In this document: piece by piece, positions 1 through 34,908 of the stretch
Numbering within the stretch: position 1 is the stretch's first letter
How the letters are laid out: each line of letters starts with the position of its first letter
NCBI RefSeq assembly: GCF_964030965.1
Contig: NZ_OZ034999.1
Location: 1,860,001 to 1,924,000, forward strand
Source of the DNA: Spiroplasma endosymbiont of Amphimallon solstitiale
GTDB lineage: Bacteria; Bacillota_I; Bacilli_A; Mycoplasmatales; VBWQ01
Direction of reading: 5' to 3'
DNA length: 64,000 bases
The notes under the pieces: generated by a model
The model's database searches: none
What the model was told of the DNA's origin: nothing
The model's input: the letters and a program-made list of their open reading frames with translations, nothing else
Program-made: the position numbers and the translations under genes

Positions 1-44
1 TTATTATTGTAAAAATTATATTAAAAATTAATCAAATATTTTAA
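1..44 (+). CDS. Small single-span membrane protein of prophage copy A, 3' end only
   Basis: These bases encode the last 13 residues and TAA stop of a small hydrophobic protein whose complete homologue (40 aa) lies at 5804-5926 on the minus strand. In both copies it sits directly upstream of the portal gene, and the stop codon is followed by the portal ribosome binding site. The 5' part lies outside the window. Its function is unknown. Confidence 0.6.
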   Translation, partial: IIVKIILKINQIF

Positions 45-61
45 GAAAGGGGATGAATATT

Positions 62-1345
62 ATGTTAAGTTTATTTAAAAGAAAAGATAAAACAAATATT
101 AATGATAATCAAAGTGAAAAATTAAAATTTTTAACTAATAAAAATAAAAGTACACATGCTTCTATTTTAAATTATTTTGGTTTTAATGATTTTAACCATG
201 AAACTTATTTTACTGATTTTGTAGCAGAAAATAATTTTAATTATGTAGAAAAGTATGGATGACCAAAAATTATTCATCAATTTACACTTAAAATATTATT
301 TTTAATTAAAAATTTGTTAAAAGTAACATTATTTAGTGTAAAAATTCTCTAAAAATAACACTTTATCATGTATCATTACTTTTCTACAAAATTAAAGGAA
401 AATAATGCTAATTTATATAATGCTCCATTAGATATTAATAATGAAACTATTAAACAATATTTAATTCAACAAGATTTTTATAGAAAAAATTGAAATTCTA
501 TTTTTAAGTTAAGTAAATTAGGAATTAGTGGTTATTTAATTTATATTGCAAATGATAATTTATATTTTCAAGTAGTTGATATACAACAAAGAGTTTATGA
601 TATTACTGGTAAATTAATTCAATGTACTATTTTTTATGATAATTATGAACAAAATGCACAAACTGTAAGATTATTTGAAGTTTATACATTAAATAATGAA
701 CAAGTAATAATTAATCGTGCAATTTACAGTATTAGTGATAATAAAAAACAATTTCCATTAGATTTTAAATCATTTATTACTAATCCAAATTTAGAACAAG
801 AACAAACATTAAATATTAATTATATTCCAATAGTAATTATGAGAAATAAAGCAAATGAATTAGCAGATTGTAATAAAGTAATGGATAAAATTAAAGCATT
901 AGATGTTATTTATGAACAAATTGTTTTAGATACCATTTTAAATTCACCTAAATTTATATTTAGTCAAACTTATGGTAATGTTCAATCAACATTAGAAGAA
1001 GCAGTAAGAACATTAGTTACTAAAAACTACATATTTAAAAGTGGTGGAGATAATAATGAACAAAACGAAAATATCAATATGACAAATAGTAATTTTAAAG
1101 GTAAAAATTTAACTGATATATACGATTGAAATGTTAATGAAATATCTAAACGTTGTGGTATTCATATACCAAGTCAAAAGAAATCTGCACAACAATCAGT
1201 TCCCGAAAGTACAGCAGTAAATATTTCAACTATTAATTACATTGAACAAAAATTATGACAATTTAATATTGATATTCTTAAATTTATTCAAATATTAGTA
1301 AGCGTAGATAAAGATTTATTGGGAGCGTATCGAAGATGTCAATAA
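62..1345 (+). pseudogene. Phage portal-like protein, interrupted by a MITE
   Basis: With the 163-bp MITE and one copy of its 8-bp duplication removed, the frame runs for 370 residues with TGA as Trp. The start at 62 is chosen because AAAGGGG lies 9 bases upstream. The layout resembles portal or upper-collar proteins. It has a central antiparallel-strand region (about residues 90-180), the segment IPIVIMRNKANELADCNKVM followed by a long helix ending LDTILNSPKFIF, and a C-terminal helical part with a Ser/Thr linker. Portals form the dodecameric ring through which tailed-phage DNA is packaged. The assignment rests on fold-like pattern and on co-occurrence with scaffold and capsid genes in copy B, so it is probable rather than proven. 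The MITE enters after about residue 57, so the gene is presumably dead. Copy B keeps only its first codons at 5765-5787. Confidence 0.55.
235..397 (+). mobile_element. MITE copy 1 (IS1595-related)
   Basis: A 163-bp element begins TTTTAATTATGTAGAAAAGT; the reverse complement of its other end begins CTTTAATTTTGTAGAAAAGT. These ends match the IS1595-family elements at 30970 and 53624. It has no open reading frame of useful size. The 8-bp duplication GAAAATAA (227-234 and 398-405) flanks it. It interrupts the portal gene of prophage A. Confidence 0.9.
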
Positions 1346-1409
1346 CTAAAAAGTTTTAAAAATAGCTCCTTTCTTTTTTAAACCCTTAAATTAAAAATAA
1401 ATGACAAAA

Positions 1410-1437
1410 GACGAGAATAAAATTCTTGTCTTTTTTT
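1410..1437 (+). terminator. Terminator downstream of portal gene
   Basis: GACGAGAAT, a short AAA loop and ATTCTTGTC form a 9-bp stem with one G.U pair, followed by seven T. It ends the structural-gene transcript of prophage A and separates it from the structured region that follows. Confidence 0.7.
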
Positions 1438-1477
1438 GTAATTGTAAAATTTTAAAATTTTTATTATTAACACTCTT

Positions 1478-1800
1478 TAAATATCTACTACACGCAGTGA
1501 CCAAGTAGGAGAAAGTTAATAATTAATAATCTTCTTTAACACTATTATCAACACGTGTTAGGGAATTAAAAAAGTGAACTACAACACAGTTGTTAAAAAT
1601 AGTAGCTAGAGCATGTGGACTTGCATGGATAAATAAAAAGTGGAGTGATACCTAATAAAATATACTAACCATTTAATGGTAATTCTTGGGGTGGGAGCGA
1701 ATTGGAAACTAGTATATATAGACCTACTAGGGAACCTACTATATTAATTCTATTCTTTATTTAACCAACCTTGCCACTCCCCAGTGAGCAAGTGTTGGTT
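1478..1800 (+). ncRNA. Candidate structured phage RNA
   Basis: About 320 bases without a credible ORF are visibly richer in G and C than the surroundings and full of short complementary pairs. Examples are CTACT/AGTAG near 1487-1507, TAACAC/GTGTTA ending near 1560, ACAAC/GTTGT near 1581-1592, ACCAT/ATGGT at 1668-1680, CTAGT/ACTAG near 1709-1730, and a possible long-range pairing of GGAGTG (about 1643) with CACTCC (about 1775). The region closes with a strong terminator hairpin. It lies between two terminators in the only prophage copy that retains this part. It does not look like tRNA, tmRNA, RNase P RNA or SRP RNA. A large phage-associated RNA, a packaging RNA or a replication-control RNA are possible classes; none is shown. 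Confidence 0.45.
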
Positions 1801-1812
1801 TTATTTTTTATT
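1763..1812 (+). terminator. Strong terminator closing the candidate RNA
   Basis: AACCAAC pairs with GTTGGTT, TTGC with GCAA and CACT with AGTG around a CCCC loop. A run of almost only T follows. It is the most stable hairpin in the prophage and suggests that an RNA ends here. Confidence 0.75.
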
Positions 1813-1871
1813 TTTTTTGAAAAAATTTTTGGGCGAGAAAATAAATTTCAAACTTGTAAAAAAAATTGAGC

Positions 1872-1942
1872 GGTGCCGGTTCAATTAAAATATTAATTTA
1901 TTAAACATAAATTAAATAAATATTGAATCGAATGCCTCGATT
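1872..1942. repeat. Paired stem-loops, possible origin or regulatory site
   Basis: GGTTCAAT at 1878 pairs with ATTGAATC at 1922, with an inner AT-rich stem between them. It is followed at once by ATCGA, a 5-base loop and TCGAT. The spot is non-coding and sits between the candidate RNA and the early-gene cassette. A replication origin of the phage or a second terminator are both possible; the sequence alone does not decide. Confidence 0.35.
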
Positions 1943-2080
1943 TCTTTTTAAAATTTCACAATTTATTTTTGAGCCCAGTTTTCATGGAATGAATAAAACT
2001 AATAGTATTAATAATATAAAAATAAAAATATATATTCTTTATGCTACAAGCAACAGAATATATTAGAAAAGAAAGTAAAA

Positions 2081-2233
2081 ATGGAAGAAAAAGAAAAGAA
2101 AGAATTAATAGAACAAAAAATCAAAATAGCAAAAGAACATCAAAAAAAGTGATTAAAAATAAAAATAATTATTACTTTAATTTCAACTTTAATTGGATTA
2201 ATAATTTTATTAATTACTGTAAGTAAAAATTAA
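2081..2233 (+). CDS. Small membrane protein with charged N-terminus (prophage A)
   Basis: The 50-aa product starts with a strongly charged, helical segment rich in Glu and Lys (residues 1-25). A single membrane span rich in Ile and Leu follows (about 28-46), with a short polar tail. No family was recognised. It is the first gene of the small-gene cassette after the structured non-coding region. The start at 2081 has only a weak purine-rich binding site upstream. Confidence 0.5.
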
Positions 2234-2249
2234 AGAAATAAATAAAGTT

Positions 2250-2657
2250 ATGAATATTAATGAAAATAAAAAATGTGAATTAAGAATTTGTAAAAATAAA
2301 GTTTGAAAAGATTGTATTAATAATTCTACTAAAACTATTAAATATAAAAATTGACCAATACCTTATTTAATATGTGACAGTTGTTATCACAAACTACCTA
2401 AATACCTTAAACAAACAGCAAAAATAATTGAAAAGGATATTTTGATTATGAATAAAACTAAAAAAAGAAGAAAAAGATGTGTTGGATGTAATGAATTATA
2501 TGAAGATAACAAAATCAATATGCTTTATCACTTTAAAACAGAATTAGAAGCAGAACAACATAATACTAAAAAATATGAAGATAATTATGATATTGAAAAA
2601 CATTTAGATTATACAAAATCATATGGATATGTTTGTGATTGATGTAGAGATGATTAA
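2250..2657 (+). CDS. Small protein with two Cys clusters (prophage A)
   Basis: A 135-aa frame contains a first cysteine group (C-x4-C ... C ... CDSC) in residues 9-55 and a second (CVGC, then CDWC near the end), each typical of zinc ribbons. In-frame TGA codons are read as Trp. A Met at about residue 67 is preceded by a weak GGA, so the region may make two proteins or one. A DNA- or RNA-binding role is a guess from the zinc motifs and from the nuclease and ssDNA-binding-like genes that follow. Confidence 0.5.
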
Positions 2658-2660
2658 TAA

Positions 2661-3098
2661 ATGCAATACGAATTAATCATTGGTATTGACCCTGCTGGTA
2701 TTGGTAATAATGGAATTGTTATATACTCAAATGAAACTAATAATATTATTTTTAATGAAACATTTAAAACAAAAACAGTTTTAGAAAGTAAAAATATATA
2801 TAAAGAATATTTTAAATTAATTAAAAAACAATTTAAAAATAAAAAAATATTAGTTATTGTAGAAAATTTCTTTTTAAGTTCAAAACAGTTATTAACTAAT
2901 CCATTAGCAACACCAAAAGTTATTGGTGCTTTAATGATATTAGTACAAGATGTTATGAACTGAGATTATCATGAAAATGAACCAAAAAACAAAAATAAAA
3001 TAGAAGATTATAAAGGAAATATAAAATTTACAAAACATGAACAAGATGCTTATAAACATATTCAATATTATTTAAGGAATTATAAAAATGAAAAATAA
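2661..3098 (+). CDS. RuvC-like Holliday-junction resolvase of prophage A
   Basis: The 145-aa protein has the RNase H-like fold pattern of RuvC nucleases: IGIDPAG with the first acidic residue (Asp10), strand LVIVEN with Glu68, and the C-terminal HEQDAY with Asp129. RuvC enzymes cleave four-way DNA junctions; phage versions clear branched DNA during replication or packaging. It lies 3 bases after the Cys-cluster gene and overlaps the following OB-fold gene by 11 bases, so the cassette is probably co-transcribed. The length is a little below the usual 150-180 aa. No copy survives in prophages B or C. Confidence 0.65.
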
Positions 3099-3381
3099 AG
3101 AAAATTACGTTAAATTAACAGTAAAACTTAGTAATACTATTGAAGTAAAATATCATGAAAAAGGTAATAAACAATTATATTATACTGTTCGTGGTCAATG
3201 AAATGGATTAAACTATGTTACTTTAATTTTTAATAACCCAAAATTTTATAAACGATGTATTTTATTAAACAAAAATGATGAAATTATAGTAACTGGTCAA
3301 ATCTTTAATACTTTAAATATTCCTAAAAATCGTGCATTTTGTTCAATTAATGTTAAATGATTTAAAAAATGAAAGGAATAA
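3088..3381 (+). CDS. OB-fold, single-stranded-DNA-binding-like protein (prophage A)
   Basis: The 97-aa product has the strand pattern of a small OB fold: KLTVKLSNTIEVKYHE, then YYTVRGQW, VTLIFNNP, and DEIIVTGQI, ending in a basic Trp-rich tail. This resembles single-stranded-DNA-binding proteins. Its start overlaps the end of the RuvC-like gene. Phage SSBs coat replication intermediates, which suits the neighbour. Similarity is by pattern only. Confidence 0.5.
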
Positions 3382-3384
3382 ATA

Positions 3385-3528
3385 ATGAATTTTGATGAAT
3401 GATACATGAAAAAAATAAAAGAAACTTTAAAAATTATTGAAAGTGATAGTTATAAAGAAGAACTAAAAAAACATAATGAAATCATTGAAAAACATAAAAA
3501 TTTAATGAAAGGACTAAATAATGAATAA
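3385..3528 (+). CDS. Small charged protein (prophage A)
   Basis: The 47-aa product is helical and Lys/Glu-rich. It starts 3 bases after the OB-fold gene and overlaps the next gene by 8 bases. No recognised family. A fragment with a similar C-terminal end (LNNE in A, FNNE in B) precedes the same neighbour in prophage B at 16194-16269. Confidence 0.5.
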
Positions 3529-3628
3529 ATGTAAAAAATGTAACAAAAGAATATGATTAAGTAAAAATTGATGTATGAAATGTTTAGAAATAATAGTTAA
3601 TAATTTAACTAAAAATAAGGAGAAATAA
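3521..3628 (+). CDS. 35-aa zinc-knuckle-like protein (prophage A)
   Basis: It starts MNKCKKCNKR and has a second pair C-x3-C at residues 18-22, a compact four-Cys layout expected to bind one zinc ion. Prophage B has the same gene at 16094-16201 with only a few changes, so selection on the protein is likely. Two in-frame TGA codons are read as Trp. Confidence 0.6.
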
Positions 3629-3739
3629 ATAATTTTAGAATTAATATCTTTAATAGAAGATTATAAAGACTGTAATTTTTATAATAATTATTTAATTTAT
3701 AAAATAATGAATTTTATTATAAGAAAGGATAATAAATAA
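3629..3739 (+). CDS. Possible small ORF with non-AUG start (prophage A)
   Basis: An open frame of about 36 codons begins ATA/ATT 8-11 bases after AGGAG and ends one base into the next gene's start codon. This spacing fits translational coupling. There is no ATG until residue 27. At this position prophage B has an unrelated-looking 84-aa gene with a GTG start (15836-16090). This may therefore be a remnant or a gene with an unusual start. Confidence 0.25.
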   Translation: MILELISLIEDYKDCNFYNNYLIYKIMNFIIRKDNK

Positions 3740-3975
3740 TGATAATATTACCTACTTTATTTGGTGATAAAGATGAAATTGAAATATTAACACCATCACC
3801 GCAAGCACTTCGTACTCATAATGATATTAGAGCAATTATATTAATGAAATATCCAAATGTTAAATCAGAACATATAATTATTTCTGATCCAGAAGATAAT
3901 GTTGCATTAATAGTTGGTGATAATGATGTTTATCAAGGTTGAGTAAAAGTTTGAATTAAAAAAATAGAAAATTAA
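3739..3975 (+). CDS. Conserved 78-aa prophage protein, copy A
   Basis: The product starts MIILPTLFGDKDEIEI and ends in a strand-rich region with two Trp codons encoded by TGA. Prophage B carries an 81-aa homologue (15591-15836) with many synonymous and some amino-acid differences. The gene is therefore conserved between diverged copies. The function is not known. It lies 12 bases before the four-segment membrane protein gene in both copies. Confidence 0.6.
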
Positions 3976-3987
3976 AGGAAGAAAATT

Positions 3988-4203
3988 ATGCCAAATATAG
4001 AAAACATACAATCAAATTATACTTTATTAAAATTAATAAGAACTGGAATAAGTCCCATTTCAGCAATGATTGGTACAAGTGCTTATTATGGTCAACTTAT
4101 AGGTAATCCAATATTAGGTTCATTTAATAGTTTATTATTTGGTAAAAAATTAGGATTAGATATATGAAATTTAAATCAAAGACCAAGTAATAAAACAAAA
4201 GTA
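3988..4203 (+). pseudogene. Prophage membrane protein, 5' part, cut by IS256
   Basis: It encodes the first 72 residues, MPNIENIQSN onward, of the protein that is complete in prophage B (14771-15589). It ends exactly at the left end of the IS256 copy at 4204. The bases beyond that IS are IS30, not the rest of this gene, so the remainder was lost or moved by recombination. Confidence 0.7.
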
Positions 4204-5577
4204 GGCAATGTTTAGTAATCTGTGTAACTTACAAAAATAACTATGTTTAATTAATTCTAGTAAATATAATTAAATGACTAGAAAGAGTGAGTTACAAATG
4301 GCTAAAAAACAAAATATTAATAATAATGATCCAATATCAAAAGCAGTAGATTTATTATTAGAAAATACTGAAGATTTAACAACAGTTTTTAAAGAAGGGG
4401 GTTTATATAAAGAATTAACAAAACGTTTAGTTGAAAAAATGTTGAATTCTGAAATGCAAAATTATTTAGGATATGAAAAAAATCAACATAGTAATACTGA
4501 AAATGCTCGTAATGGTACAAGTTCAAAAAAATTAATAACTCAACAAGGTAAAATTGAGATTGATGTACCAAGAGATCGCAATAGTGATTTTACTCCTGTA
4601 ATAGTTGCAAAAAGACAGCGAAGATTTGATGGTTTTGATCAACAAGTGCTTTCACTATATGCAAAAGGTATGACTCTATCTGACATTAGAATGCAGTTAC
4701 AAGAGTTATATCATGGTGCTGATATTAGTGAAAGTGTTATTAGTCAAATTACTGATGATGTTATTGATGATGTCAAAACATGACAAAATCGACCATTAGA
4801 AAGCGTTTATCCGATTGTTTATTTTGATTGTATAGTAGTTAAAGTTCGACAAGATAAACGGATTATTAATAAATCAGTTTATATAGCATTAGGAGTTGAT
4901 TTAGAAGGTAAAAAAGATGTTTTAGGCTTATGAATTAGTGAAAATGAAGGTGCTAAATTTTGATTAGCTAATTTCACAGAAATGAAAAATCGAGGCTTAA
5001 ATGATATTTTGATTGCTTGTAGTGATAATTTAACAGGCATGTCAGAAGCAATACAAGCAGTTTATCCTAAAACAGAACATCAATTATGCATTGTTCATCA
5101 AATTCGAAATAGTTTAAAATATGTTTCATACAAACATCGAAAAACTCTAGTTACAGATTTAAAACCAATTTATAGTGCATGTAGTGAAGAACAAGCAATG
5201 CAAGCTTTAGAATCATTTGAAAGTAAATGAAATAAACAATATCCCCAAATTGCTAAATCTTGATATAAAAATTGAGAAAATTTGATGATTTTTATTAGTT
5301 ATCCTGCAGAAATCAAAAGAGTAATTTATACAACAAATGCTATTGAATCTGTTAATAGTCAATTACGAAAAGTTATTAGAAACAAAAAAGCTTTTCCTAA
5401 TGATATGTCAGTTTTTAAAATATTTTATTTAGCAATTGAAAATATAACAAAAAAATGAACATTGCCTATTCAAAATTGAAATACAGCAATTGTTCATTTT
5501 ATGATAAAATTTGAAGACAGAATTAATCTGAACTAGTACTTTGTAAAACAAAGATACACAGATTACTAAAAAGCCTC
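4204..5577 (+). mobile_element. IS256-family element, copy 1 (no target duplication)
   Basis: The 1374-bp element begins GGCAATGTTTAG; the reverse complement of its other end begins GAGGCTTTTTAG. The shared core of both ends is AATCTGTGTA. Left flank CAAAAGTA is phage DNA. Right flank AATAATAA is the inside of an IS30 element. The flanks differ, so this copy is a recombinant. The partner of the right flank is copy 5 (18553-19926). Confidence 0.9.
4274..5536 (+). CDS. IS256-family transposase
   Basis: A 420-residue DDE transposase reads through many TGA-Trp codons; a start at MAKKQN (residue 9) is equally likely. Family hallmarks are the first Asp in [10 protein letters not shown], the second in [13 protein letters not shown] followed by CIVHQIRNS, and the catalytic Glu in [15 protein letters not shown]. 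It should cut and join the element ends. The gene looks intact. Confidence 0.92.
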
Positions 5578-5764
5578 AATAATAATGGTATTTTAAGAAG
5601 ATATTTACCAAAATCTACAGATCTATCTTCATATAAACAAAAAGATTTAAATACTATAGCATTTCAAATTAATTCTACACCCAGAAAATCACTATCTTAT
5701 AAAAGACCAATAGATTTAATACAATTATTTTAAAAAACTGTCCCATTTATATTTACAATTCAGG
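5578..5764 (+). mobile_element. IS30-family element, 3' fragment
   Basis: The last 187 bases of the IS30 element seen whole at 54795-55855 are here, including the transposase C-terminus and the inverted repeat ending CAATTCAGG. Its left edge is the IS256 copy at 4204. The missing 5' part is the fragment at 19927-20808. The right edge falls inside the portal gene of prophage B. Confidence 0.85.
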
Positions 5765-5787
5765 TTTCTAAAAAATCTACCTAACAT
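5765..5787 (-). pseudogene. First codons of the prophage B portal gene
   Basis: Reading MLGRFFR, these few codons follow AAAGGTGGT and the 40-aa membrane protein, exactly as the portal gene does in copy A at 62. The IS30 end at 5764 removes the rest. The fragment shows that portal follows tail genes in this phage. Confidence 0.6.
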
Positions 5788-5803
5788 AATATTCACCACC
5801 TTT

Positions 5804-5926
5804 CTAAAATATTTGATTAATTTTTAATATTATTTTTACAATGATAAATATAATTAAACCTGCTGTTGCTGATGATAAAATTACTCCAATTAAACCTAAA
5901 ATAATTTTTATAATTTTAAAAAACAT
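5804..5926 (-). CDS. 40-aa single-span membrane protein (prophage B)
   Basis: This tiny protein is almost entirely one or two hydrophobic helices: MFFKIIKIILGLIGVILSSA, then more Ile and a short polar tail. It starts 4 bases after the tail-fibre-like gene. A minor coat, portal-associated or holin-like role would each fit; there is no direct evidence. Copy A retains its 3' end (1-44). Copy C retains only the start at 38362. Confidence 0.6.
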   Translation of the reverse strand: MFFKIIKIILGLIGVILSSATAGLIIFIIVKIILKINQIF

Positions 5927-5930
5927 AATA

Positions 5931-8282
5931 TTATTCCTGTAATTCTTCTAATTTTCATACATTACCTTTTAAATTACCTTTTCCACTATAAATAGTAATC
6001 AATTTAGCATGTTGAACTGATAAAATTACTATATTAACACTATCATTAAAGGTTTGTATTGGTACACCAGCAATTTTGTTATCCGTTATAATAAATTCTT
6101 GAATAGTATAAACTGGATTATATATACTTCAAGAATAATAAACTCTATAATGTTTATTAACTATAAAATCATAAGTAATTTGTCAATTATCTCATTTATT
6201 TTTTTCTCTTGTTCCTACATCTTTTCATTGTTGATTATTTGGACTTGGTGTTGGATTATCTGGTAATTCAATATCTCAACAATTTTCTTCAACTTCATTT
6301 GTTTCTAAACTTTTTGAATTAATTTTTATTTTTGGTGTAACATCAACTTTAATTGTATTTTGTAATTCTTCTAATGAAAGAATAGCACCATAATTAATAT
6401 CTCCACCTTTTAAATATAAACTACAATTAAAACTACTTTCTCTAACAGTTAAAGTTAATATTACATCTTCATCTTTAATTTTAAATTTTGCAAGTAAATA
6501 ATCTCCACCTAAATAATTACCAGTTTTAAATTCTACTTTATGCTTTATATTTGCTTGATTTACTGGTAATTCATCTAATGTTATAATTACTCTATATACA
6601 GTATTAAAATTAATTTCAAACGTATCTCATTCACGATTATTTTTACTTTTACTTATTACTTTTCATATTTCTTTATCTTGTTTTTTATCAATATTTGCTT
6701 TATTTTCATTAATAGCACCAGCAACAGTTTTATTAATAGTTTCTAAATTAGGGATTTCTTGACTTACAGCATTCAATTGAAATGCAATAGGGAATTGTGA
6801 CTTTACATCTTCTAATTTTTTATCAATTTCTGGTTTTGTATAATATTTAGTTGGGTCAACTCCACCACCACTATCTTTAATTCATTGTTTAATAAATTTA
6901 GTTGGTGGAATATCTAAATCACCCGTAAATAAACCAGTTCCTAATTCTTTATATTGTAAAACTTTATAAGTAATATCTTCTTTAATTAAAGATAATTTAT
7001 CTTGTTTTTTATCTAATAAATTATTAGTTTCTAGTTTTGTATAATAATCACGTTCAGTATTTTCTTCTGCTATAAATTCAGTTGGTGTTCCAGTACCTTG
7101 ATATTGATATATATTATGAATTATTGGTGTATACTTTTTTGTGCTATTAGCAACAATAAATTTTATTAAATTATCATCATATAATAACATTACTTTGTCA
7201 ATATTAACATCAATTTTTTCAATTATTATTTGTCTATTTTCTATTTGATGATTAGTAATTCTTATATTAGATTTAGTTAATTTATTATTACTTATAATAA
7301 GTTGTTTACTATCGATAAAATAATATGTTCAATCAATAATATATCATATATCTGTTTTAATATTTTCATTTTTAACTTTTTTTCATAAAGGACTAGTTTC
7401 AATATTAAATCAATTATTTTTAATATCATCAATATTTTGTTTATTAATATCAACTTTATTTTCTAATAATTTAATACTATTTTCATTAGTAGTAATTCTT
7501 TTTTGTTGTTTAGCAGAAAAGTCAGCAGTCGCAGCATGAGTAAAATCACCAATTTGTGGATTATTTTGTAATGCTTCTGGTGGTAATGTACCAATTTCAT
7601 CAGGTCAATCTAAAATCATTGTTTCAGTTTTTGGGTCATAATCAGTTGCAACATAACCTTTATTTATAAAGTTTGTAACACGACCCCTATATATCTCATT
7701 TTCGTTATCATTAACTAAATCATCATATAATTTTATTTGTTTTGATAATGTAAATTCTTTTTGTTCTTTAATTAATTCATCAACTTGATTTCTAGTATAA
7801 AATACTTTTAAGTCAATTTTTTCAATATCTATTTCATCTTGATTATAATTTGAAAATACTTGTTTTAATTCTGTTAATCTTGCTCATATTTTCATTCTAC
7901 TTGGTGCTAAATCTCAAACATTAATTGTAGGAATACTACTTGCATTAAATGATGTACCATTATTGAATTGAATAGTAGCATCAACATTAAATTCAATTGG
8001 TGTACGATTAAATACTCAATGTTCAACCATTACATAAACCATATCTCTTAATGTTTCTTTAATTAATTCATCTTTAAAACTATCAAAAGGAAATTTAGAT
8101 AAAATAAAATCAAGATAAGCATTAATATCATTTTGAGCGCGAATAGCAAAAGTTGTAAATCAATCATTAACATTTGGTCATGTTTGTATATATTGCTGTG
8201 GAGTTTCTGTAATTTTTCCAGTTAATGGATATCAGTTATTATAATTTTCAAGACTGACATCAGTTCAAAGTTTATTAATCAT
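5931..8282 (-). CDS. Large tail/fibre-like structural protein (prophage B)
   Basis: A 783-aa frame is intact with TGA as Trp. The first 180 residues (MINKLWTDVSLENYNNW onward) look like a compact tail domain. The middle contains repeated phage-fibre signatures with YT followed by a Lys/Glu-rich coiled coil: AFYTRNQVDELIKEQ, DYYTKLETNNLLDKKQ and KYYTKPEIDKKL. Such segments trimerise many receptor-binding proteins. Two beta-rich C-terminal domains follow, one with the proline-rich linker DIELPDNPTPSPNNQQW. A role in host attachment is inferred. It follows the 565-aa gene by 3 bases. Copy C has a broken homologue whose middle has diverged while both ends are nearly identical, as expected for a receptor-binding protein. 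Confidence 0.6.
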
Positions 8283-8485
8283 AATTTATCATTCCTTAAA
8301 AAATGCTTTTTTATAATGTTTAGTTTTTGTTTTAGTTTTCCTATGTGATATATGGATAATTTCTTTTTGTAATTTTTTCTTACCTTTTTCTACAACTTGA
8401 CTATATGCAAATTTTTCTAAATGATGTAATAGTCCAGTACCAAATAAAGTATTAACTGAAAATTTTAAACCAACACTTTTAAATG

Positions 8486-9859
8486 GAGGCTTTTTAGAAA
8501 TCTGTGTATCTTTGTTTTACAAAGTACTAGTTCAGATTAATTCTGTCTTCAAATTTTATCATAAAATGAGCAATTGCTGTATTTCAATTTTGAATAGGCA
8601 ATGTTCATTTTTTTGTTATATTTTCAATTGCTAAATAAAATATTTTAAAAACTGACATATCATTAGGAAAAGCTTTTTTGTTTCTAATAACTTTTCGTAA
8701 TTGACTATTAACAGATTCAATAGCATTTGTTGTATAAATTACTCTTTTGATTTCTGCAGGATAACTAATAAAAATCATCAAATTTTCTCAATTTTTATAT
8801 CAAGATTTAGCAATTTGGGGATATTGTTTATTTCATTTACTTTCAAATGATTCTAAAGCTTGCATTGCTTGTTCTTCACTACATGCACTATAAATTGGTT
8901 TTAAATCTGTAACTAGAGTTTTTCGATGTTTGTATGAAACATATTTTAAACTATTTCGAATTTGATGAACAATGCATAATTGATGTTCTGTTTTAGGATA
9001 AACTGCTTGTATTGCTTCTGACATGCCTGTTAAATTATCACTACAAGCAATCAAAATATCATTTAAGCCTCGATTTTTCATTTCTGTGAAATTAGCTAAT
9101 CAAAATTTAGCACCTTCATTTTCACTAATTCATAAGCCTAAAACATCTTTTTTACCTTCTAAATCAACTCCTAATGCTATATAAACTGATTTATTAATAA
9201 TCCGTTTATCTTGTCGAACTTTAACTACTATACAATCAAAATAAACAATCGGATAAATGCTTTCTAATGGTCGATTTTGTCATGCTTTGACATCATCAAT
9301 AACATCATCAGTAATTTGACTAATAACACTTTCACTAATATCAGCACCATGATATAACTCTTGTAACTGCATTCTAATGTCAGATAGAGTCATACCTTTT
9401 GCATATAGTGAAAGCACTTGTTGATCAAAACCATCAAATCTTCGCTGTCTTTTTGCAACTATTACAGGAGTAAAATCACTATTGCGATCTCTTGGTACAT
9501 CAATCTCAATTTTACCTTGTTGAGTTATTAATTTTTTTGAACTTGTACCATTACGAGCATTTTCAGTATTACTATGTTGATTTTTTTCATATCCTAAATA
9601 ATTTTGCATTTCAGAATTCAACATTTTTTCAACTAAACGTTTTGTTAATTCTTTATATAAACCCCCTTCTTTAAAAACTGTTGTTAAATCTTCAGTATTT
9701 TCTAATAATAAATCTACTGCTTTTGATATTGGATCATTATTATTAATATTTTGTTTTTTAGCCATCTGTAACTCACTCTTTCTAGTCATTTAATTATATT
9801 TACTAGAATTAATTAAACATAGTTATTTTTGTAAGTTACACAGATTACTAAACATTGCC
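8486..9859 (-). mobile_element. IS256-family element, copy 2
   Basis: A full 1374-bp copy in minus orientation, flanked by the 8-bp duplication TTTAAATG (8478-8485 and 9860-9867). It is thus a simple insertion into the 565-aa structural gene. Confidence 0.93.
8527..9789 (-). CDS. IS256-family transposase
   Basis: An intact 420-residue transposase. It differs from the 4274 copy by a few residues, for example DVKA in place of DVKT and ESIYP in place of ESVYP. Confidence 0.9.
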
Positions 9860-10228
9860 TTTAAATGATTTATTAATATTTTCAATAGGATTATTAATAA
9901 CATTTACTACTTTATGATAAGTTCTAATAGTTCTAAATATTTCTCTATATACTTTAAAACTATCTCTAATTACTTGTTGCACCACTGGTGGAGCAAATGC
10001 TATTGCTTTTAATCATTTATTACGATTAACACCATAACCAATGTATCAACCACTATATCAACGATATCAATGAAATGGATGTATTTGAGTAACAAAAGTT
10101 TTTGCTTTAAGAATACTATCAACAACTGTAATTGGTTTATACTTAGGATTACGATGATAAATAGTAATTGCACATTTGTCTAATGATAAAGGTTGAATTT
10201 TACAACCCATAAATACTGGTGAATTTAG

Positions 10229-11602
10229 GGCAATGTTTAGTAATCTGTGTAACTTACAAAAATAACTATGTTTAATTAATTCTAGTAAATATAATTAAAT
10301 GACTAGAAAGAGTGAGTTACAGATGGCTAAAAAACAAAATATTAATAATAATGATCCAATATCAAAAGCAGTAGATTTATTATTAGAAAATACTGAAGAT
10401 TTAACAACAGTTTTTAAAGAAGGGGGTTTATATAAAGAATTAACAAAACGTTTAGTTGAAAAAATGTTGAATTCTGAAATGCAAAATTATTTAGGATATG
10501 AAAAAAATCAACATAGTAATACTGAAAATGCTCGTAATGGTACAAGTTCAAAAAAATTAATAACTCAACAAGGTAAAATTGAGATTGATGTACCAAGAGA
10601 TCGCAATAGTGATTTTACTCCTGTAATAGTTGCAAAAAGACAGCGAAGATTTGATGGTTTTGATCAACAAGTGCTTTCACTATATGCAAAAGGTATGACT
10701 CTATCTGACATTAGAATGCAGTTACAAGAGTTATATCATGGTGCTGATATTAGTGAAAGTGTTATTAGTCAAATTACTGATGATGTTATTGATGATGTCA
10801 AAACATGACAAAATCGACCATTAGAAAGCATTTATCCGATTGTTTATTTTGATTGTATAGTAGTTAAAGTTCGACAAGATAAACGGATTATTAATAAATC
10901 AGTTTATATAGCATTAGGAGTTGATTTAGAAGGTAAAAAAGATGTTTTAGGCTTATGAATTAGTGAAAATGAAGGTGCTAAATTTTGATTAGCTAATTTC
11001 ACAGAAATGAAAAATCGAGGCTTAAATGATATTTTGATTGCTTGTAGTGATAATTTAACAGGCATGTCAGAAGCAATACAAGCAGTTTATCCTAAAACAG
11101 AACATCAATTATGCATTGTTCATCAAATTCGAAATAGTTTAAAATATGTTTCATACAAACATCGAAAAACTCTAGTTACAGATTTAAAACCAATTTATAG
11201 TGCATGTAGTGAAGAACAAGCAATGCAAGCTTTAGAATCATTTGAAAGTAAATGAAATAAACAATATCCCCAAATTGCTAAATCTTGATATAAAAATTGA
11301 GAAAATTTGATGATTTTTATTAGTTATCCTGCAGAAATCAAAAGAGTAATTTATACAACAAATGCTATTGAATCTGTTAATAGTCAATTACGAAAAGTTA
11401 TTAGAAACAAAAAAGCTTTTCCTAATGATATGTCAGTTTTTAAAATATTTTATTTAGCAATTGAAAATATAACAAAAAAATGAACATTGCCTATTCAAAA
11501 TTGAAATACAGCAATTGCTCATTTTATGATAAAATTTGAAGATAGAATTAATCTGAACTAGTACTTTGTAAAACAAAGATACACAGATTTCTAAAAAGCC
11601 TC
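10229..11602 (+). mobile_element. IS256-family element, copy 3
   Basis: A full 1374-bp copy with the 8-bp duplication GAATTTAG (10221-10228 and 11603-11610). It is the second insertion in the same prophage B gene, about 370 bases from copy 2 and in opposite orientation. Confidence 0.93.
10299..11561 (+). CDS. IS256-family transposase
   Basis: An intact 420-residue transposase with all three acidic catalytic motifs. Like copy 2 it has ESIYP instead of ESVYP. Confidence 0.9.
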
Positions 11603-12761
11603 GAATTTAGTGGAATTAATTGTGCATGTTTAATTGCTCTTTTTTCTGCACTAGTAAATAAATCTGTTGCTTTTTCTTTTAATTTATTAATTTTTTCAAA
11701 TGCTTGTTTTTCTAATTTTTCAAATTTTTCTTGTAATTTATATATACTTTCTCGTAATTTTTCAAAATATGGTGTATCTTTTCAAAATTTATTTAAACCT
11801 TTTTTTAAATAAAATCTAATATCAAAATACTTAAAAATTTTATTTGCATTTAAAACAATTTTATGAATTGAACTATTTTTAAAATTAAATTTAATAGCAT
11901 TAGCACGAATTTTTTGTAAATCTAAAATTAAAGTTTTTCCATATCTATTCTCTGTATGTATTGTATGAACTAAATTTAATCAATCATGTTGGTTCATTTT
12001 TAATACTTCTTTTAATTCAGTATTATATTTTTTTAAAAAGTTATTTGCTTTTTCAATATCTTTAATTTTAAACTTTGGAGTTAATTGTGGACTTAATTTT
12101 ATTAATGTATTTTGTAATGATAAATATTCTTTTATTTGTTGTGATTTTAAAGATTTAAAATTATTTTTAAATTGTTTTTCAGCAACATAACCTAAATTTT
12201 GTGTTATTGTTTCACGATTAGGTGCCAAACTATAATTAAATAAATAACGTTTATTACCAATGATTTTATCTGTTAAAATTTCTTTTCCACTTACTTGACT
12301 AATAATTTCTTGTAAATTTTTTGCTTCTTTAACACCAATTTGTTCTAATGTTTTAGTTTTTTGTGCTAACTTAATAAATTTAGTAGTACGATAACCACGA
12401 CTAATTTTATTAATTCCAACAAATGCAGGTAATATATTAAAAAAAGTATTTAATGGTGTTACATTTCCTTTTAAATAATCATAAACTTGATTAATAGTAA
12501 AATCAGTTAAAAACTCTACACCAACAGCACTAATACTAGCAATTAAATCACTTGCACCTAATCCAAGTGCTATACTTTCACTTAAACCACCAGTAAAAGG
12601 AGCAAGTGCTACTGCTATTACTTGTACACCAATCATTTCTAAAATTTCTCATCAAAAACTTTTATTTTCTTGTTGGTTACTTGTTCTAGTATGTTTTGGT
12701 TTATTTATGTTTAAAAGTATTGCTGTACTAGTTGTACCAATTGGCATGATATTAATTTCCT

Positions 12762-13946
12762 TTATTTAAGAGTTATTTTAATTGGATTTGTTGTTCCTTT
12801 ATAATTTAAGTCATTAACATTTGCAGTAATAGTTATATATAAGTCACCTACTTTTTGTTTTTGATTACTTACATTAGTTTTTCCTTGTGCATCACTAAAA
12901 TATTTAATAGTTGGATTTGTTAAATTAGGATTTAATGTTTTAAATTCATTAGTACTTTTTATTTCTGTATTTAATTCATTGTTATTGTTATTAACATTTG
13001 CAGTAATATTTGTTGTTAAAACTGTAATTTTAGTTTTTAAATCATTTTTTTCTGTTTTAATAACTCCACATAACATTCATCTTGATGTTGTTTCATTATT
13101 AGAAATATATGGGATTGCTTCTCCAACAACTTCACCAGCAACTTTATATGCTCTTCCTGCTTTAGCATCTTTAATAAAATCTACATAAATAACTGTATTT
13201 TCTATCATGTATCTTTTCATCGCTCTTGGTGTTGCTAAAACAAAGGTCATTAATTGTTGTTCATTTTTATCATTAGTAAAAATCATATAGTCATCAAGAA
13301 CGATTTCACATAATACGCCTTTTACATATAAATTATTTCCATTTAAACGTAATTGTTGTGCCAACTGATTATCGGTAATTAAACCTTTATTATCTGCTAA
13401 ATAAACTAAACTATCATAAAGACCATTAGTAATAAAAAATTTACTATTTGCAATATTTCTAAATTGAAACAAAGTATTTCAAGCAGATAACATCGATTTT
13501 AAATAGTCTACTGGTGTTGTATCTTCAATATCGATTTTAGTAGCAAATTTTGCAATTGCTTGTGTATCATCAATTGCCAATTTATCTGCTAAATCATTTG
13601 CAACTTCATATTGCATACTATCTAATAAATTTTGTCCATTATTTGCTTTTAAATCTACATCTGCAATAATTTCTCCTGCAAGATATTTTTTAGTTATTTT
13701 TTTACTAATTTTATCTGTATCAACATATGGTAATTCATATCTTTTACTTTTATCATCCCAAGCAATAATTTTTACTTCCGGTTTTTTTGGTTTTTTAACA
13801 ATAAACTCAATATTTACTGAGTCAACAATTTCAGTAGGAAAAAAGTTTGCCCATGGACTATTTGAAATTTTAAAAAACTCTATAAATTCTGGTGCTTCTA
13901 CTAATCTCTCTGTATTGTCTAAATTTTGATTAAATGGTACTGACAT
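12762..13946 (-). CDS. Major capsid protein (prophage B)
   Basis: The 394-aa frame is complete with TGA as Trp and is preceded by AAAGGAAG at good spacing. It directly follows a scaffold-like gene, the usual head-gene order. The first 310 residues have the alternating strand-helix pattern of HK97-fold coat proteins: N-arm, long helix around QNLLDSMQYEVANDLADKLA, then a strand-rich body with TFVLATPRAMKRYMIE. The last 80 residues form a separate beta-rich domain (TNPTIKYFSDAQGKTNVSNQ onward), like the Ig-like decorations on some coats, including phi29. The fold is inferred. The 3' part survives almost unchanged in prophage C (32430-32942). Confidence 0.65.
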
Positions 13947-13964
13947 TTTATTTCTTCCTTTCGT

Positions 13965-14342
13965 TTATAAATAATTTTTCTTTTTATAATTAATTAAAAA
14001 ATTTTCTTTATCATTTGTTTTATTATTAATAATTATTTGTTTATTGCCACCTGTATTAATTGTTTGTTTAAATACCGGTTGTTCTTTAATCATTTTTTTA
14101 ATAGTTTCTTCAATTTTTGAATTTTCTATATTACTTGTTTTAAATTTTAAATAATCATAAAATTCAGTTTTAACTTGATATTTTTTAAATATATTAATCA
14201 TTTCTTTTTCTTTAATTTCTTGATTAAGTTTATTTAACTTATTTTCTGCTTCATTAACTTTATTTTCTATTTCTTGTGAAGAAGCATTATTTTCAGTTAA
14301 AGGTTCAGTTGTTTGTTGAACATTATTTTCATTTTCTAACAT
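13965..14342 (-). CDS. Capsid scaffold protein (prophage B)
   Basis: The 125-aa acidic-to-basic protein is dominated by a Glu/Lys/Asn coiled coil (residues 20-50). A short folded segment around KYQVKTEFYDYLKFK and a basic C-terminus follow. This layout and position immediately before the coat gene match DUF4355-like scaffold proteins, which guide procapsid assembly and then leave. The gap to the capsid gene is 18 bases, so the two are surely co-transcribed. Confidence 0.6.
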   Translation of the reverse strand: MLENENNVQQTTEPLTENNASSQEIENKVNEAENKLNKLNQEIKEKEMINIFKKYQVKTEFYDYLKFKTSNIENSKIEETIKKMIKEQPVFKQTINTGGNKQIIINNKTNDKENFLINYKKKNYL

Positions 14343-14358
14343 TTACATCACCACTTTT

Positions 14359-14547
14359 TTATTTATTTTCTTTATTAATCTTTTCATTTAACTTTGCTAA
14401 TTTTTTTTGATGTTTAATAATTTTGTTATTTGCTCTAACATGTTTTGGAGTTGTGATAAATCTTTTTAATAAAACAATAATTTCTCGACAAATTAATGTT
14501 CCAACGCTTGTTCCAATAATAATTAATTCATGTATAAATTCTTTCAT
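14359..14547 (-). CDS. Small membrane protein with basic tail (prophage B)
   Basis: The 62-aa product has one membrane span at residues 6-28 and a strongly basic, helical C-terminus. It is preceded by AAAGGAAA. A holin-like role is possible from size and layout alone, but the basic tail is also found in small phage head proteins. It lies 16 bases upstream of the scaffold gene. Confidence 0.5.
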   Translation of the reverse strand: MKEFIHELIIIGTSVGTLICREIIVLLKRFITTPKHVRANNKIIKHQKKLAKLNEKINKENK

Positions 14548-14565
14548 TTCAATATTTTCCTTTCA

Positions 14566-14754
14566 TTAATTAATTTTTTGATTTGTATCTAATTCCATTA
14601 CTAATATTTGATAATCCTGAATATAAGCATTTTCTAATATATGATGTTTATAATTTCTATGAAAATTAATAGCATTTTCAATTGTAGAAAATAATTTATA
14701 TTTTGTTTCAATTCCATAATTAGTTTTATATTTTAATAAATAAGCATATTTCAT
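14566..14754 (-). CDS. Unknown 62-aa prophage protein
   Basis: The start at 14754 (MKYAYLLKYKTNYG) is chosen because AAGGAG lies 9 bases upstream; a longer frame has no such site. The product is strand-rich and resembles small YopX- or DUF-type phage accessory proteins only in size. Its function is unknown. Confidence 0.45.
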   Translation of the reverse strand: MKYAYLLKYKTNYGIETKYKLFSTIENAINFHRNYKHHILENAYIQDYQILVMELDTNQKIN

Positions 14755-14770
14755 TTTAATATTCTCCTTT

Positions 14771-15589
14771 TTATAAATGATAATAATTTTCATCAAATTC
14801 TAAATTTGCATTAACATTAACTTCACTCATATTATCACTACCATATTGACTAGTTGTTTCACTATTAATTGAAAATCTATTATCATTATTAATTAAATGT
14901 GCTATTTCATTTGTAAAACTAGTTTCTTGCATTTCTACATCAAATTTTCTTTCCATAGGTAATAAATTATGGATAATTTCACTTGCACCAGCAATTATGG
15001 TAGGTACTGCATAAGCATTATTAAAATCATTATTTATCCCCATTGCAACACCACTTGAAATTAAACCACCACCAGTAGCCATATTACAAATTTTTCTTAT
15101 TGTTTCAAATTTATTAGGTATTAATTCTAGAATTCCACTAATAAGATTTGAAATACCATAAGCATTTAAACTAATATATGTATCTCAATCCATTAATGAC
15201 TGATTTTCTTGTTTATTTAATAGTAATCATGGAGGACCTTCTGTTGTAGTTGTAGTAGTTACTGGAATTGGTGTTGTTGGAATAATAGGATTAATATTAT
15301 TTTCAGTTCATTTACTATAATTTGCTAATCCAATTGTTCCTAAACCTAATAAGATTTTTTTAGAACTATTAATTAATTTAGTTTTAGTATTTGGTCTTTG
15401 ATTTAAATTTCATATATCTAAACCTAATTTTTTACCAAATAATAAACTATTAATTGAACCCAATATTGAATTATCTATTACTTGACCATAATAAGCACTT
15501 GTACCTATCATTGCACAAATTGGGCTTATACCAGTTCTTATTAATTTAGTTAAAGTATAATTTGATTGTGTATTTTCTATACTTGGCAT
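14771..15589 (-). CDS. Multi-segment membrane-associated prophage protein (prophage B)
   Basis: A 272-aa frame is complete with TGA as Trp. It has hydrophobic segments near residues 15-30, 80-95, 155-170 and 185-220, and a Thr/Pro-rich linker with six consecutive Thr around residue 125. Its C-terminal 60 residues are polar. Copy A has the first 72 residues at 3988. The glycine-rich hydrophobic stretches suggest a membrane-inserting virion protein or lysis factor. No family was recognised. Confidence 0.55.
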
Positions 15590-15590
15590 T

Positions 15591-15836
15591 TTATTCTCCT
15601 TTAATTTCTAATTTTTTAACTGTTACTTTAATTCAACCTTGATAAACATCATTATCACCAACTATTAATGCAACATTACTTTCGGGATCAGAAACAATTA
15701 TGTGTTTTGATTTAACATTTGGATATTGTTTTAAAATAATTGCTCTAATATCATTACTTGTATGAATTGCTTTTGGAAATGGTGATAATATTTCAATTTC
15801 ATCTTTATTTTCAAACAAAGTAGGTAATATTATCAT
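15591..15836 (-). CDS. Conserved 81-aa prophage protein, copy B
   Basis: Homologue of 3739-3975 with about 20 amino-acid differences, mainly near the C-terminus. Its start overlaps the stop of the preceding gene by one base, and it ends 1 base before the membrane protein gene, so the cassette is tightly coupled. Confidence 0.6.
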
Positions 15837-16090
15837 TAATGAAGTTCTCCATTTTCTATAAACTCAATTAATTTATAATAAGCAGTAAGTTTACCTGCTT
15901 CTTTTAATGAATCACATAAACAAATACTAATTTGCTTATTCAATCAGATAATTAATTTTTCATTATATTTATTAATTACTTTTTGTTTAAACTCTTCTCT
16001 TAATTTTTCTATATTATATAAATGTTCTTCAGTTATTTCTTTATTACGTTTTTTATTATATTCATTAATAATTTCTTGGTCTTTATTCAC
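15836..16090 (-). CDS. 84-aa helical protein with GTG start (prophage B)
   Basis: Starting at GTG with AGGAG 9 bases upstream, it encodes a Lys/Glu-rich helical protein (NKDQEIINEYNKKRN, later LREEFKQKVINKYNEK). There is no copy in prophage A at this position, where a different short frame stands. Unknown function. Confidence 0.5.
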
Positions 16091-16093
16091 TAT

Positions 16094-16201
16094 CTATTTC
16101 TCCTTATTTTTATTTAAATTATTAACTATTATTTCTAAACATGTCATACATCAATTTTTACTTAATCAGATTCTTTTATTACATTTTTTACATTTATTCA
16201 T
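16094..16201 (-). CDS. 35-aa zinc-knuckle-like protein (prophage B)
   Basis: Counterpart of 3521-3628 with the same CKKC and C-x3-C pairs and two TGA-Trp codons. In both copies the start overlaps the end of the preceding small gene. Confidence 0.6.
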
Positions 16202-16269
16202 TATTAAATTCACCATTAATTATTTTTTGCAATAAAATATCAAGTATCAAATCTATTTCTGTACCGTTA
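16194..16269 (-). pseudogene. 3' end of a small prophage B gene, cut by IS5
   Basis: The last 24 codons, ending INGEFNNE, run up to the IS5-family element at 16270. The IS5 end has TTA on its left, consistent with a TNA target duplication whose other copy is no longer adjacent. Confidence 0.45.
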
Positions 16270-21335: not shown

Positions 21336-21352
21336 AAAATAAAATTTCTATT

Positions 21353-32110: not shown

Positions 32111-32121
32111 CCAAATTCTTC

Positions 32122-32284: not shown

Positions 32285-32429
32285 GATCTATCTTCATATA
32301 AACAAAAAGATTTAAATACTATAGCATTTCAAATTAATTCTACACCCAGAAAATCACTATCTTATAAAAGACCAATAGATTTAATACAATTATTTTAAAA
32401 AACTGTCCCATTTATATTTACAATTCAGG
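32285..32429 (+). mobile_element. IS30-family element, 3' end fragment
   Basis: The last 145 bases of IS30, starting at GATCTATCTTC and ending CAATTCAGG. Its right edge enters the capsid gene of prophage C. Confidence 0.88.
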
Positions 32430-32942
32430 AATGATAAAAATGAACAACAATTAATGACCTTTATTTTAGCAACACCAAGAGCGATGAAAAGATACATGAT
32501 AGAAAATACAGTTATTTATGTAGATTTTATTAAAGATGATAAAGCAGGAAGAGCATATAAAGTTGCTGGTGAAGTTGTTGGAGAAGCAATACCATATATT
32601 TCTAATAATGAAACAACATCAAGATGAATGTTATGTGGAGTTATTAAAACAGAAAAAATTAATTTAAAAACTAAAATTACAGTTTTAACAACAAATATTA
32701 CTGCAAATGTTAATAACAATAACAATGAATTAAATACAGAAATAAAAAGTACTAATGAACTTAAATCATTAAATCCAAATTTAACAAATCCAACTATTAA
32801 ATATTTTAGTGATGCACAAGGAAAAACTAATGTAAGTAATCAAAAACAAAAAGCAGGTGACTTATATATAACTATTACTGCAAATGTTAATGACTTAAAT
32901 TATAAAGGAACAACAAATCCAATTAAAATAACTCTTAAATAA
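32430..32942 (+). pseudogene. Major capsid protein, 3' part (prophage C)
   Basis: The last 170 residues are open and nearly identical to prophage B: NDKNEQQLMTFILATPRA through the C-terminal Ig-like domain ending NPIKITLK. The IS30 end removes the N-terminal 224 residues, so no coat protein can form. Confidence 0.75.
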
Positions 32943-34149: not shown

Positions 34150-34312
34150 CTTTAATTTTGTAGAAAAGTAATGATACATGATAAAGTGTTATTTTTAGAG
34201 AATTTTTACACTAAATAATGTTACTTTTAACAAATTTTTAATTAAAAATAATATTTTAAGTGTAAATTGATGAATAATTTTTGGTCATCCATACTTTTCT
34301 ACATAATTAAAA
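34150..34312 (-). mobile_element. MITE copy 5
   Basis: 163 bp with 8-bp duplication GATAAATG, inside the prophage C structural gene. Confidence 0.9.
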
Positions 34313-34745: not shown

Positions 34746-34908
34746 TTTTAATTATGTAGAAAAGTATGGATGACCAAAAATTATTCATCAATTTACACTT
34801 AAAATATTATTTTTAATTAAAAATTTGTTAAAAGTAACATTATTTAGTGTAAAAATTCTCTAAAAATAACACTTTATCATGTATCATTACTTTTATAAAA
34901 AATTAAAG
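34746..34908 (+). mobile_element. MITE copy 6
   Basis: 163 bp with 8-bp duplication GAAATTAT. The right terminal repeat is altered (TTTATAAAAAATTAAAG), so this copy may no longer move. Confidence 0.88.

What the first reader, a model, noticed from the sequence alone, without database searches (positions are those of the whole stretch)
1..16269. A compact tailed-phage family with capsid, scaffold, portal and fibre genes but no visible terminase, polymerase, integrase or lysin
Prophage A runs from the 40-aa membrane gene through portal and small genes to the multi-segment membrane protein. Prophage B runs from the small genes through that protein, scaffold, capsid and tail to the portal start. 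The two overlap at both ends, so together they close a circle of about 11 kb once IS elements are removed. No Walker A motif, integrase or polymerase signature was found in that circle. Either a small novel virus relies on host or helper functions (satellite-like), or a segment was deleted from A between portal and RuvC.
Basis: partly seen in the sequence, partly recalled or inferred. Interest (0 to 1): 0.75.

Follow-up and report, generated by a model that had tools for sequence, protein, structure and literature searches.

The report
Spiroplasma tailed phages carrying jumping-gene transposases
The window holds broken copies of a small virus of Spiroplasma bacteria; complete copies in related genomes suggest that it inserts itself like a jumping gene and that many of its copies have lost the gene for its DNA-packaging enzyme.

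Summary
The capsid-, scaffold-, portal- and fibre-type genes are real, but the 11-kb circle is not a unit. The window holds remnants of several copies of one element; at 1321 the left inverted repeat of one copy sits inside the portal gene of another, which explains the portal-to-RuvC joint. Identical tandem dimers in a congener give complete units of 15.3-17.6 kb. The part missing here holds a 674-aa protein, a small membrane protein, a large terminase (TerL, absent in many copies) and, at the right end, a DDE transposase of the Mbov_0401 (mycoplasma ICE) family. Four of five TerL+ units have perfect 8-bp target duplications; four of four tandem junctions hold 5 bp of the left flank. So this is most likely a transposable tailed phage. 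Stretches from four other genus-level groups of the order show the same order of structural genes and TerL, with Mbov_0401-, IS3- or rve-type transposases. TerL is absent from 25 of 45 firmly classified same-genus units, whose structural genes still look constrained. No polymerase was recognised; a lysin is not expected in wall-less hosts. Particles, packaging in trans and the capsid and portal folds are unproven; both structure predictions failed.

The parts
53..1320 (+). portal-type gene of copy 1, codons to ~369; broken near 203-401 by a dispersed repeat; the copy starts upstream of the window (scaffold hit at genome 1851951)
1321..1345 (+). left terminal inverted repeat of copy 2 (TerL+ class end), inserted in the portal gene of copy 1
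   Evidence: (94.9% to the TerL+ class left-end probe)
2250..2657 (+). 135-aa protein of copy 2, zinc-binding by look (alternative to the 172-aa gene of other copies)
2661..3098 (+). RuvC-like protein of copy 2
   Evidence: weak PHROG match of the relative L025 protein (phrog_1770 E 0.0088)
3088..3381 (+). 97-aa protein of copy 2, SSB-like by look and position; no family hit
3739..3975 (+). 78-aa protein of copy 2
3988..4209 (+). membrane protein of copy 2, residues 1-73, cut by IS256
5764..5926 (-). 40-aa membrane gene (about 5926-5804) and first ~11 codons of portal (about 5796-5764) of copy 3
5931..8282 (-). 783-aa tail-fibre-type protein of copy 3
8289..12747 (-). 572-aa-type protein of copy 3 in three pieces, split by two IS256 elements (8530-9789 and 10299-11558)
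12762..13946 (-). major-capsid-type protein of copy 3
   Evidence: two distant proteins in the same position match PHROG major head families weakly
13965..14342 (-). scaffold-type protein of copy 3
14359..16090 (-). small genes of copy 3: p62, 76-aa, 272-aa membrane protein, 81-aa, 84-aa
18297..18566 (-). remnant of the 674-aa protein (residues 431-515) between two IS256 copies
32415..38357 (+). copy 4 remnant outside the finding: capsid C-terminal part, 572-aa-type protein, fibre, interrupted by IS
40938..40958 (+). right terminal inverted repeat of a TerL- class copy, probably the end of copy 4

Best explanation
The window carries fragments of at least four copies of a compact transposable tailed phage of Spiroplasma. 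The complete phage (about 15-18 kb) is a transposon bounded by imperfect terminal inverted repeats. From the left end it carries small genes (RuvC-like, SSB-like), scaffold, capsid, a 572-aa protein, fibre, a small membrane protein, portal, a 674-aa protein, a small membrane-anchored protein and, in its full form, a divergently read large terminase; a DDE transposase lies next to the right end. Shown: gene order, ends, target duplications, tandem junctions, presence or absence of terminase. Inferred: the transposase brings the element out as a circle whose joined ends hold 5 bp of flanking DNA, host enzymes replicate it, terminase packages it, and after infection the transposase inserts it at scattered sites, other copies included. 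In the window one copy landed in the portal gene of another, and IS elements and rearrangement broke the rest.
For: Complete units in congeners: tandem dimers identical over the whole period (15319, 15623, 17585, 17612 bp) and shared order p172/zn135...portal-p674-lipo-(terL)-tnp in G002 and G005. Transposase: NCBIfam ICE_Mbov_0401 287.7 bits against a cut-off of 162; Pfam UPF0236. Ends: inverted repeats with tnp next to the right one; 4 of 5 TerL+ units with perfect 8-bp target duplications, against 3 of 182 mismatched pairings with a repeat of 7 or more; 4 of 4 tandem junctions hold the last 5 bp of the left flank (read by eye). TerL: alignment of 9 with invariant K59, D166-E167, N242, D373, D380, D535; a distant member matches phrog_2 TerL at 2e-9; the profile hits 28 of 320 genomes of the order, and 7 of 16 fetched distant stretches also hold p674 and portal with fibre or p572. 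G183 unit: 14,917 bp, 24-bp inverted repeats with 1 mismatch and an apparent GTA duplication, beside an IS3-like transposase. Window joint at 1321.
Against: Capsid and portal names rest on position, size and weak matches of distant relatives; models had pLDDT 32 and 29; phi29 capsid and connector comparisons were null; no credible solved-structure match by sequence for TerL or portal. The ixodetis-group TerL itself has no Pfam or NCBIfam match and only weak PHROG matches. Of ten TerL- units only two have a perfect duplication, one by script and one by eye. One TerL+ dimer (G002 1261k) has an imperfect one. The right-hand partner of the nested insertion at 1321 was not found. No recognised replication gene. 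No evidence of particles or free circles. A blind inverted-repeat scan missed the known ends in two TerL+ controls.
Confidence: 0.85

Rival explanations
1. TerL-less copies are satellites: they still make capsid, portal and fibre but depend on the terminase of TerL+ siblings in the same cell for packaging.
For: 25 of 45 firmly classified units lack TerL; the transposase tree puts TerL- copies in two clades, each with members from G000, G001, G002 and G004; structural genes of TerL- copies have dN/dS like TerL+ (portal 0.22 and 0.26, p674 0.24 and 0.28); p674 is not sorted by TerL state (10 changes, shuffled mean 10.0); each of G000, G001, G002 and G004 also holds at least one TerL frame of 560 or more residues.
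Against: Purifying selection may predate the loss or be carried over by recombination with TerL+ copies. The portal tree is partly sorted by TerL state (7 changes against a shuffled mean near 13). No packaging data. 8 of 10 TerL- units tested show no perfect target duplication.
Confidence: 0.4
2. TerL-less copies are dead or purely intracellular transposons; their structural genes look constrained only because they recombine with TerL+ copies.
For: p674 and, less so, portal trees mix the two classes; many TerL- units have broken or unseen genes (capsid intact in 14 of 27, p572 in 12 of 27, which counts genes beyond the fetched stretch as not intact).
Against: TerL+ units are broken or unseen about as often for some genes (p572 intact in 12 of 20, p674 in 13 of 20); two of the four identical tandem dimers are TerL-; TerL- clades are shared between host strains.
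Confidence: 0.4
3. A genuinely terminase-less virus of about 11 kb, as first proposed.
For: Only the window's own fragments.
Against: Left end at 1321 inside the portal gene; periods of 15.3-17.6 kb; a terminase in the same place in other groups of the order.
Confidence: 0.03
4. The transposase is an IS hitch-hiker beside an ordinary prophage that integrates by another route.
For: The window is full of IS elements.
Against: In the complete units mapped, the transposase lies inside the inverted repeats next to the right end; duplications bracket phage plus transposase together; the tandem unit includes it; the IS3-like case repeats the pattern.
Confidence: 0.04
5. A domesticated particle (gene-transfer-agent-like) maintained for the host.
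For: Structural genes constrained; TerL sometimes absent.
Against: Multi-copy at many sites and broken by IS elements, not one conserved locus.
Confidence: 0.04

Closest known systems
p-MULT 5 mycoplasma ICEs (ICEA, ICEF, ICEHo; Guerillot 2014, PMC3942029, passages seen; PMC6813540, passages seen)
   Same: Transposase gene next to one inverted repeat; 8-9 bp target duplications; joined circle ends separated by a few bases taken from the flank. That our Mbov_0401-type protein belongs to p-MULT 5 is inferred from the NCBIfam name (ICE_Mbov_0401).
   Different: Phage-type structural genes and terminase instead of conjugation genes; 5-bp coupling where those passages give 6-10 bp (and 6 bp). The passages seen call all p-MULT 5 elements mycoplasma ICEs.
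Mu-like transposable phages (recalled)
   Same: Tailed phage that integrates by DDE transposition at scattered sites.
   Different: About 15-18 kb, no MuB-like ATPase seen, other transposase families, circular junctions inferred; Mu packs from integrated copies with host flank (recalled), untested here.
phi29 and Mycoplasma phage P1, small podoviruses (records EU771092 and AF246223)
   Same: Small tailed phages, P1 of a mollicute.
   Different: Their records list a DNA polymerase; none recognised here; phi29 capsid and connector comparisons null. P1 proteins were not compared.
SpV3 short-tailed viruses of S. citri and Drosophila spiroplasmas (morphology recalled; one title seen in a reference list)
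   Same: Tailed virus of Spiroplasma; the TerL family is present in the genome whose contig length (1,938,611) equals the N50 given for S. poulsonii MSRO.
   Different: No sequence of SpV3 was available to compare.

Membership tests
Tailed phage (Caudoviricetes) | large terminase with ATPase and RNase H nuclease motifs | tested here: met
   the Walker A is canonical only in two of the groups aligned (g31, g33) and degenerate in the others
Tailed phage (Caudoviricetes) | HK97-fold major capsid protein | tested here: inconclusive
   distant member phrog_422 4.8e-4 and phrog_267 0.01, another phrog_422 0.018, two others no head family; model pLDDT 32; phi29 comparison null
Tailed phage (Caudoviricetes) | portal protein | tested here: inconclusive
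   position and size only; null
p-MULT 5 transposon | ICE-type DDE transposase next to one inverted repeat | tested here: met
p-MULT 5 transposon | 8-9 bp target duplication | tested here: met
   TerL+ 4 of 5, TerL- 2 of 10 (one of the two read by eye)
p-MULT 5 transposon | joined ends with a flank-derived coupling sequence | tested here: met
   5 bp in 4 of 4 tandem junctions, one base short of the 6-10 bp in print; circles themselves not observed
Mycoplasma ICE | type IV secretion genes | tested here: not met
   no such Pfam family among the unit proteins scanned; the smallest frames were not scanned
Mu-like transposable phage | MuA/MuB pair | tested here: not met
   transposase matches another family; no P-loop frame in the four same-genus units scanned
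Small protein-primed podovirus (phi29, P1) | encoded protein-primed DNA polymerase | tested here: not met
   no polymerase family among the unit proteins scanned; not tested with a dedicated polymerase profile search
Phage satellite | packaged by a helper in trans | not testable with these tools
   only genomic hints
SpV3 | identity of virion DNA | not testable with these tools
   no sequence held

The most novel reading that the evidence does not exclude
These Spiroplasma phages are a lineage of virus-transposons that exchange whole DDE transposase modules (Mbov_0401, IS3-like, rve type) as their integration machinery, and whose populations inside one chromosome are split into full phages and terminase-less, capsid-making copies packaged in trans; they are also the genome behind the short-tailed SpV3 particles known only by microscopy.
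Probability: 0.3. Interest if true: 0.85.

Novelty: new variant of a known kind. Interest (0 to 1): 0.7.

Why it matters
It would add a second way of being a transposable tailed phage, built on a transposase family that the passages seen tie to mycoplasma ICEs (PMC3942029). It offers a mechanism for part of the prophage load reported in expanded Spiroplasma genomes (PMC13375240 and PMC9742256, passages seen), and a testable case of phages that drop only their packaging motor while keeping the virion genes. It also gives sequence handles for asking what the SpV3 particles are.

Tried and rejected
Structure prediction of the capsid-type protein and of TerL: both unusable (pLDDT 32 and 29), so no fold search was run. 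Sequence profiles against solved structures: only chance-level matches for TerL and portal. phi29 capsid and connector: no similarity. INPHARED tblastn with capsid, TerL and p674: no match. IMG/VR with capsid, portal and TerL: no relative. The tools note that records near the window's genome may be left out. Rfam on L088 5600-9000: nothing up to E 0.1. Two other terminase-like families in the own genome (291-aa remnant L026, 450-aa L057) were first taken for this phage's terminase; the 568-aa gene beside the transposase is the one that travels with it. A blind search for inverted repeats found a convincing pair only in G183; it missed the known ends in two controls, so its blanks for G164, G176 and G314 mean nothing. 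Horizontal transfer between host strains was considered with valyl-tRNA synthetase (96% listed identity to the three nearest strains); listed portal identities between strains are no higher, so no claim is made. tRNA scan of the window with the bacterial code: none.
Full report
What the window shows. Mapped against complete relatives, 1-16269 holds parts of three copies of one element and several IS256 copies: copy 1 (portal 53-1320, earlier genes upstream of the window), copy 2 (zn135, RuvC-like, SSB-like, p78 and a piece of the membrane protein, 2250-4209) and copy 3 on the minus strand (16090 down to about 5764). A fourth remnant lies at 32415-40958. The capsid query has 35 matches and the portal query 32 in the 2.12-Mb own genome, fragments included.

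Why a circle seemed to close. At window 1321 the sequence inside the portal frame changes to the left inverted repeat of the TerL+ class of the same element (94.9% over the left-end probe; sequence; place again). So one copy was inserted in the portal gene of another. The other end with a matching duplication was not found in the genome, so the place has probably been rearranged since. The joint is therefore no evidence of a unit that runs from portal to RuvC.

The complete unit. In the congener G002 four tandem dimers give periods of 15319, 15623, 17585 and 17612 bp; the two copies are identical over 15317 of 15317, 15623 of 15625, 17586 of 17589 and 17608 of 17609 compared bases, the compared stretch reaching a few bases past some ends. 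The three stretches listed frame by frame (L088 and L090 of G002, L094 of G005) and the mapped others share the order p172 (or zn135), RuvC-like, SSB-like, small genes, membrane protein, scaffold, capsid, p572, fibre, portal, p674, a small membrane-anchored protein (lipoprotein-like by look in distant members), then transposase. In two of the four dimers and in G005 a 568-aa gene read the other way lies between the membrane-anchored protein and the transposase.

The terminase. The 568-aa protein has no Pfam or NCBIfam match and weak PHROG matches, but its family reaches 28 of 320 genomes of the order. An alignment of nine members keeps one lysine in the Walker A place, an Asp-Glu pair, an Asn and three acidic residues in the nuclease half; the distant L184 member matches the PHROG large terminase at 2e-9. 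Of 16 distant stretches, chosen because they hold TerL, 13 also match p674, 10 the transposase profile and 7 the portal. The capsid profile reached 7 of 320 genomes, two of them only by its C-terminal part.

The transposase and the ends. The gene at the right end is Mbov_0401-family (287.7 bits, cut-off 162). Comparing copies gives sharp ends. Of five TerL+ units four have perfect 8-bp target duplications; of ten TerL- units one has a perfect 9-bp repeat by script and a second by eye, where the script could not place the boundary; one more differs at one base of eight by eye; pairing ends of different units gave a repeat of 7 or more in 3 of 182. Four of four tandem junctions carry 5 bp equal to the last 5 bp of the left flank. 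Guerillot et al. (PMC3942029, passages) give for Mutator-type prokaryotic elements inverted repeats of 18-39 bp, duplications of 8-9 bp and joined circle ends with 6-10 bp of flank, and call the p-MULT 5 elements mycoplasma ICEs; PMC6813540 (passages) gives 8-bp duplications and 6-bp coupling. The match in anatomy is close, with phage-type genes in place of conjugation genes.

Module exchange. In G183 the same phage order ends in a transposase with HTH_21 and rve domains (phrog_157), IS3-like by that make-up (recalled), and the 14,917-bp unit is bounded by 24-bp inverted repeats with one mismatch and an apparent 3-bp duplication GTA (by eye). In G314 the neighbour of TerL is an rve-type protein whose ends were not found. 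In several g32 stretches and in L191 it is a protein that matches our Mbov_0401-type profile; the two of these that were scanned (L187, L191) had no Pfam family at E 0.1. The order p572-fibre-portal-p674-TerL is seen in four other genus-level groups (g31, g32, g33, g49); in g33 the fibre is placed by position only.

Terminase-less copies. Of 56 portal-anchored rows, 3 duplicates and 6 without a readable right side were dropped; of the 47 left, 20 have TerL (fragments included) and 27 were counted as without. Two of the 27 are doubtful, leaving 25 of 45. On the transposase tree (43 rows) TerL- copies fall in two groups and need 2 changes against a shuffled mean of 14.5. On the portal tree the label needs 7 changes against about 13, on the p674 tree 10 against 10.0: p674, and to a lesser degree portal, moves between the classes. 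dN/dS is alike in both (TerL+ and TerL-: portal 0.26, 0.22; capsid 0.38, 0.43; p572 0.31, 0.34; p674 0.28, 0.24; scaffold 0.63, 0.79; RuvC-like 0.30, 0.34; SSB-like 0.11, 0.09); pairs include divergence from before any loss. This fits packaging in trans by siblings but also passive mixing; the data do not decide. That most TerL- units tested lack duplications is unexplained.

What stays open. Capsid and portal are named by order, size and weak matches of distant relatives; both AlphaFold jobs failed. Replication is unknown: no polymerase was recognised. A lysin is not expected in wall-less bacteria (established knowledge). Novelty was checked by searches of the held library and passages of nine papers; several report many prophages in Spiroplasma, but none of the passages seen describes this element. 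Whole texts were not read, and most subscription papers are not held.

Noticed in passing
L057:6364-13857 (own genome about 1211364-1218857): A second, unrelated tailed-phage module (TerL 450 aa, phrog_2 3e-18; portal 433 aa, phrog_533 2e-6; 827-aa, 166-aa and 396-aa proteins) lies beside a copy of the transposable phage; five related TerL matches of about 250 residues in the genome.
   Followed up: partly
L026:1993-2868: A third terminase-like gene (291 aa, phrog_3717 2e-8), seen mostly as fragments in the own genome.
   Followed up: partly
L182 (G177), L183: The genome of contig length 1,938,611 (the N50 given for S. poulsonii MSRO) holds several TerL plus transposase pairs, two TerL genes about 5.2 kb apart in the same orientation.
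   Followed up: no
window 203-401, 21161-21340, 26126-26319, 32115-32308, 34143-34336, 34734-34913, 35750-35943, 37288-37467: Dispersed repeat of about 180-194 nt in both orientations, some copies at breaks of phage genes; several frames around it share MYHYFSTKLK or FNFVEK, so it looks like IS ends or a MITE.
   Followed up: no
L094:17069-17668 (G005): Rolling-circle replication initiator (199 aa, phrog_3419 3e-21) next to a transposable-phage copy.
   Followed up: no
L088:7069-8114: About 1 kb at the tandem junction, between transposase and p172, with only one minor listed frame (74 aa, minus strand); no Rfam match; a candidate for origin or regulatory DNA.
   Followed up: partly
own genome: p172 and zn135 look like alternatives at the same place left of the RuvC-like gene.
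   Followed up: no
TerL- units, e.g. G002 84997-115629 and 893754-924994: Well-defined ends but no target duplication, unlike most TerL+ units tested.
   Followed up: partly
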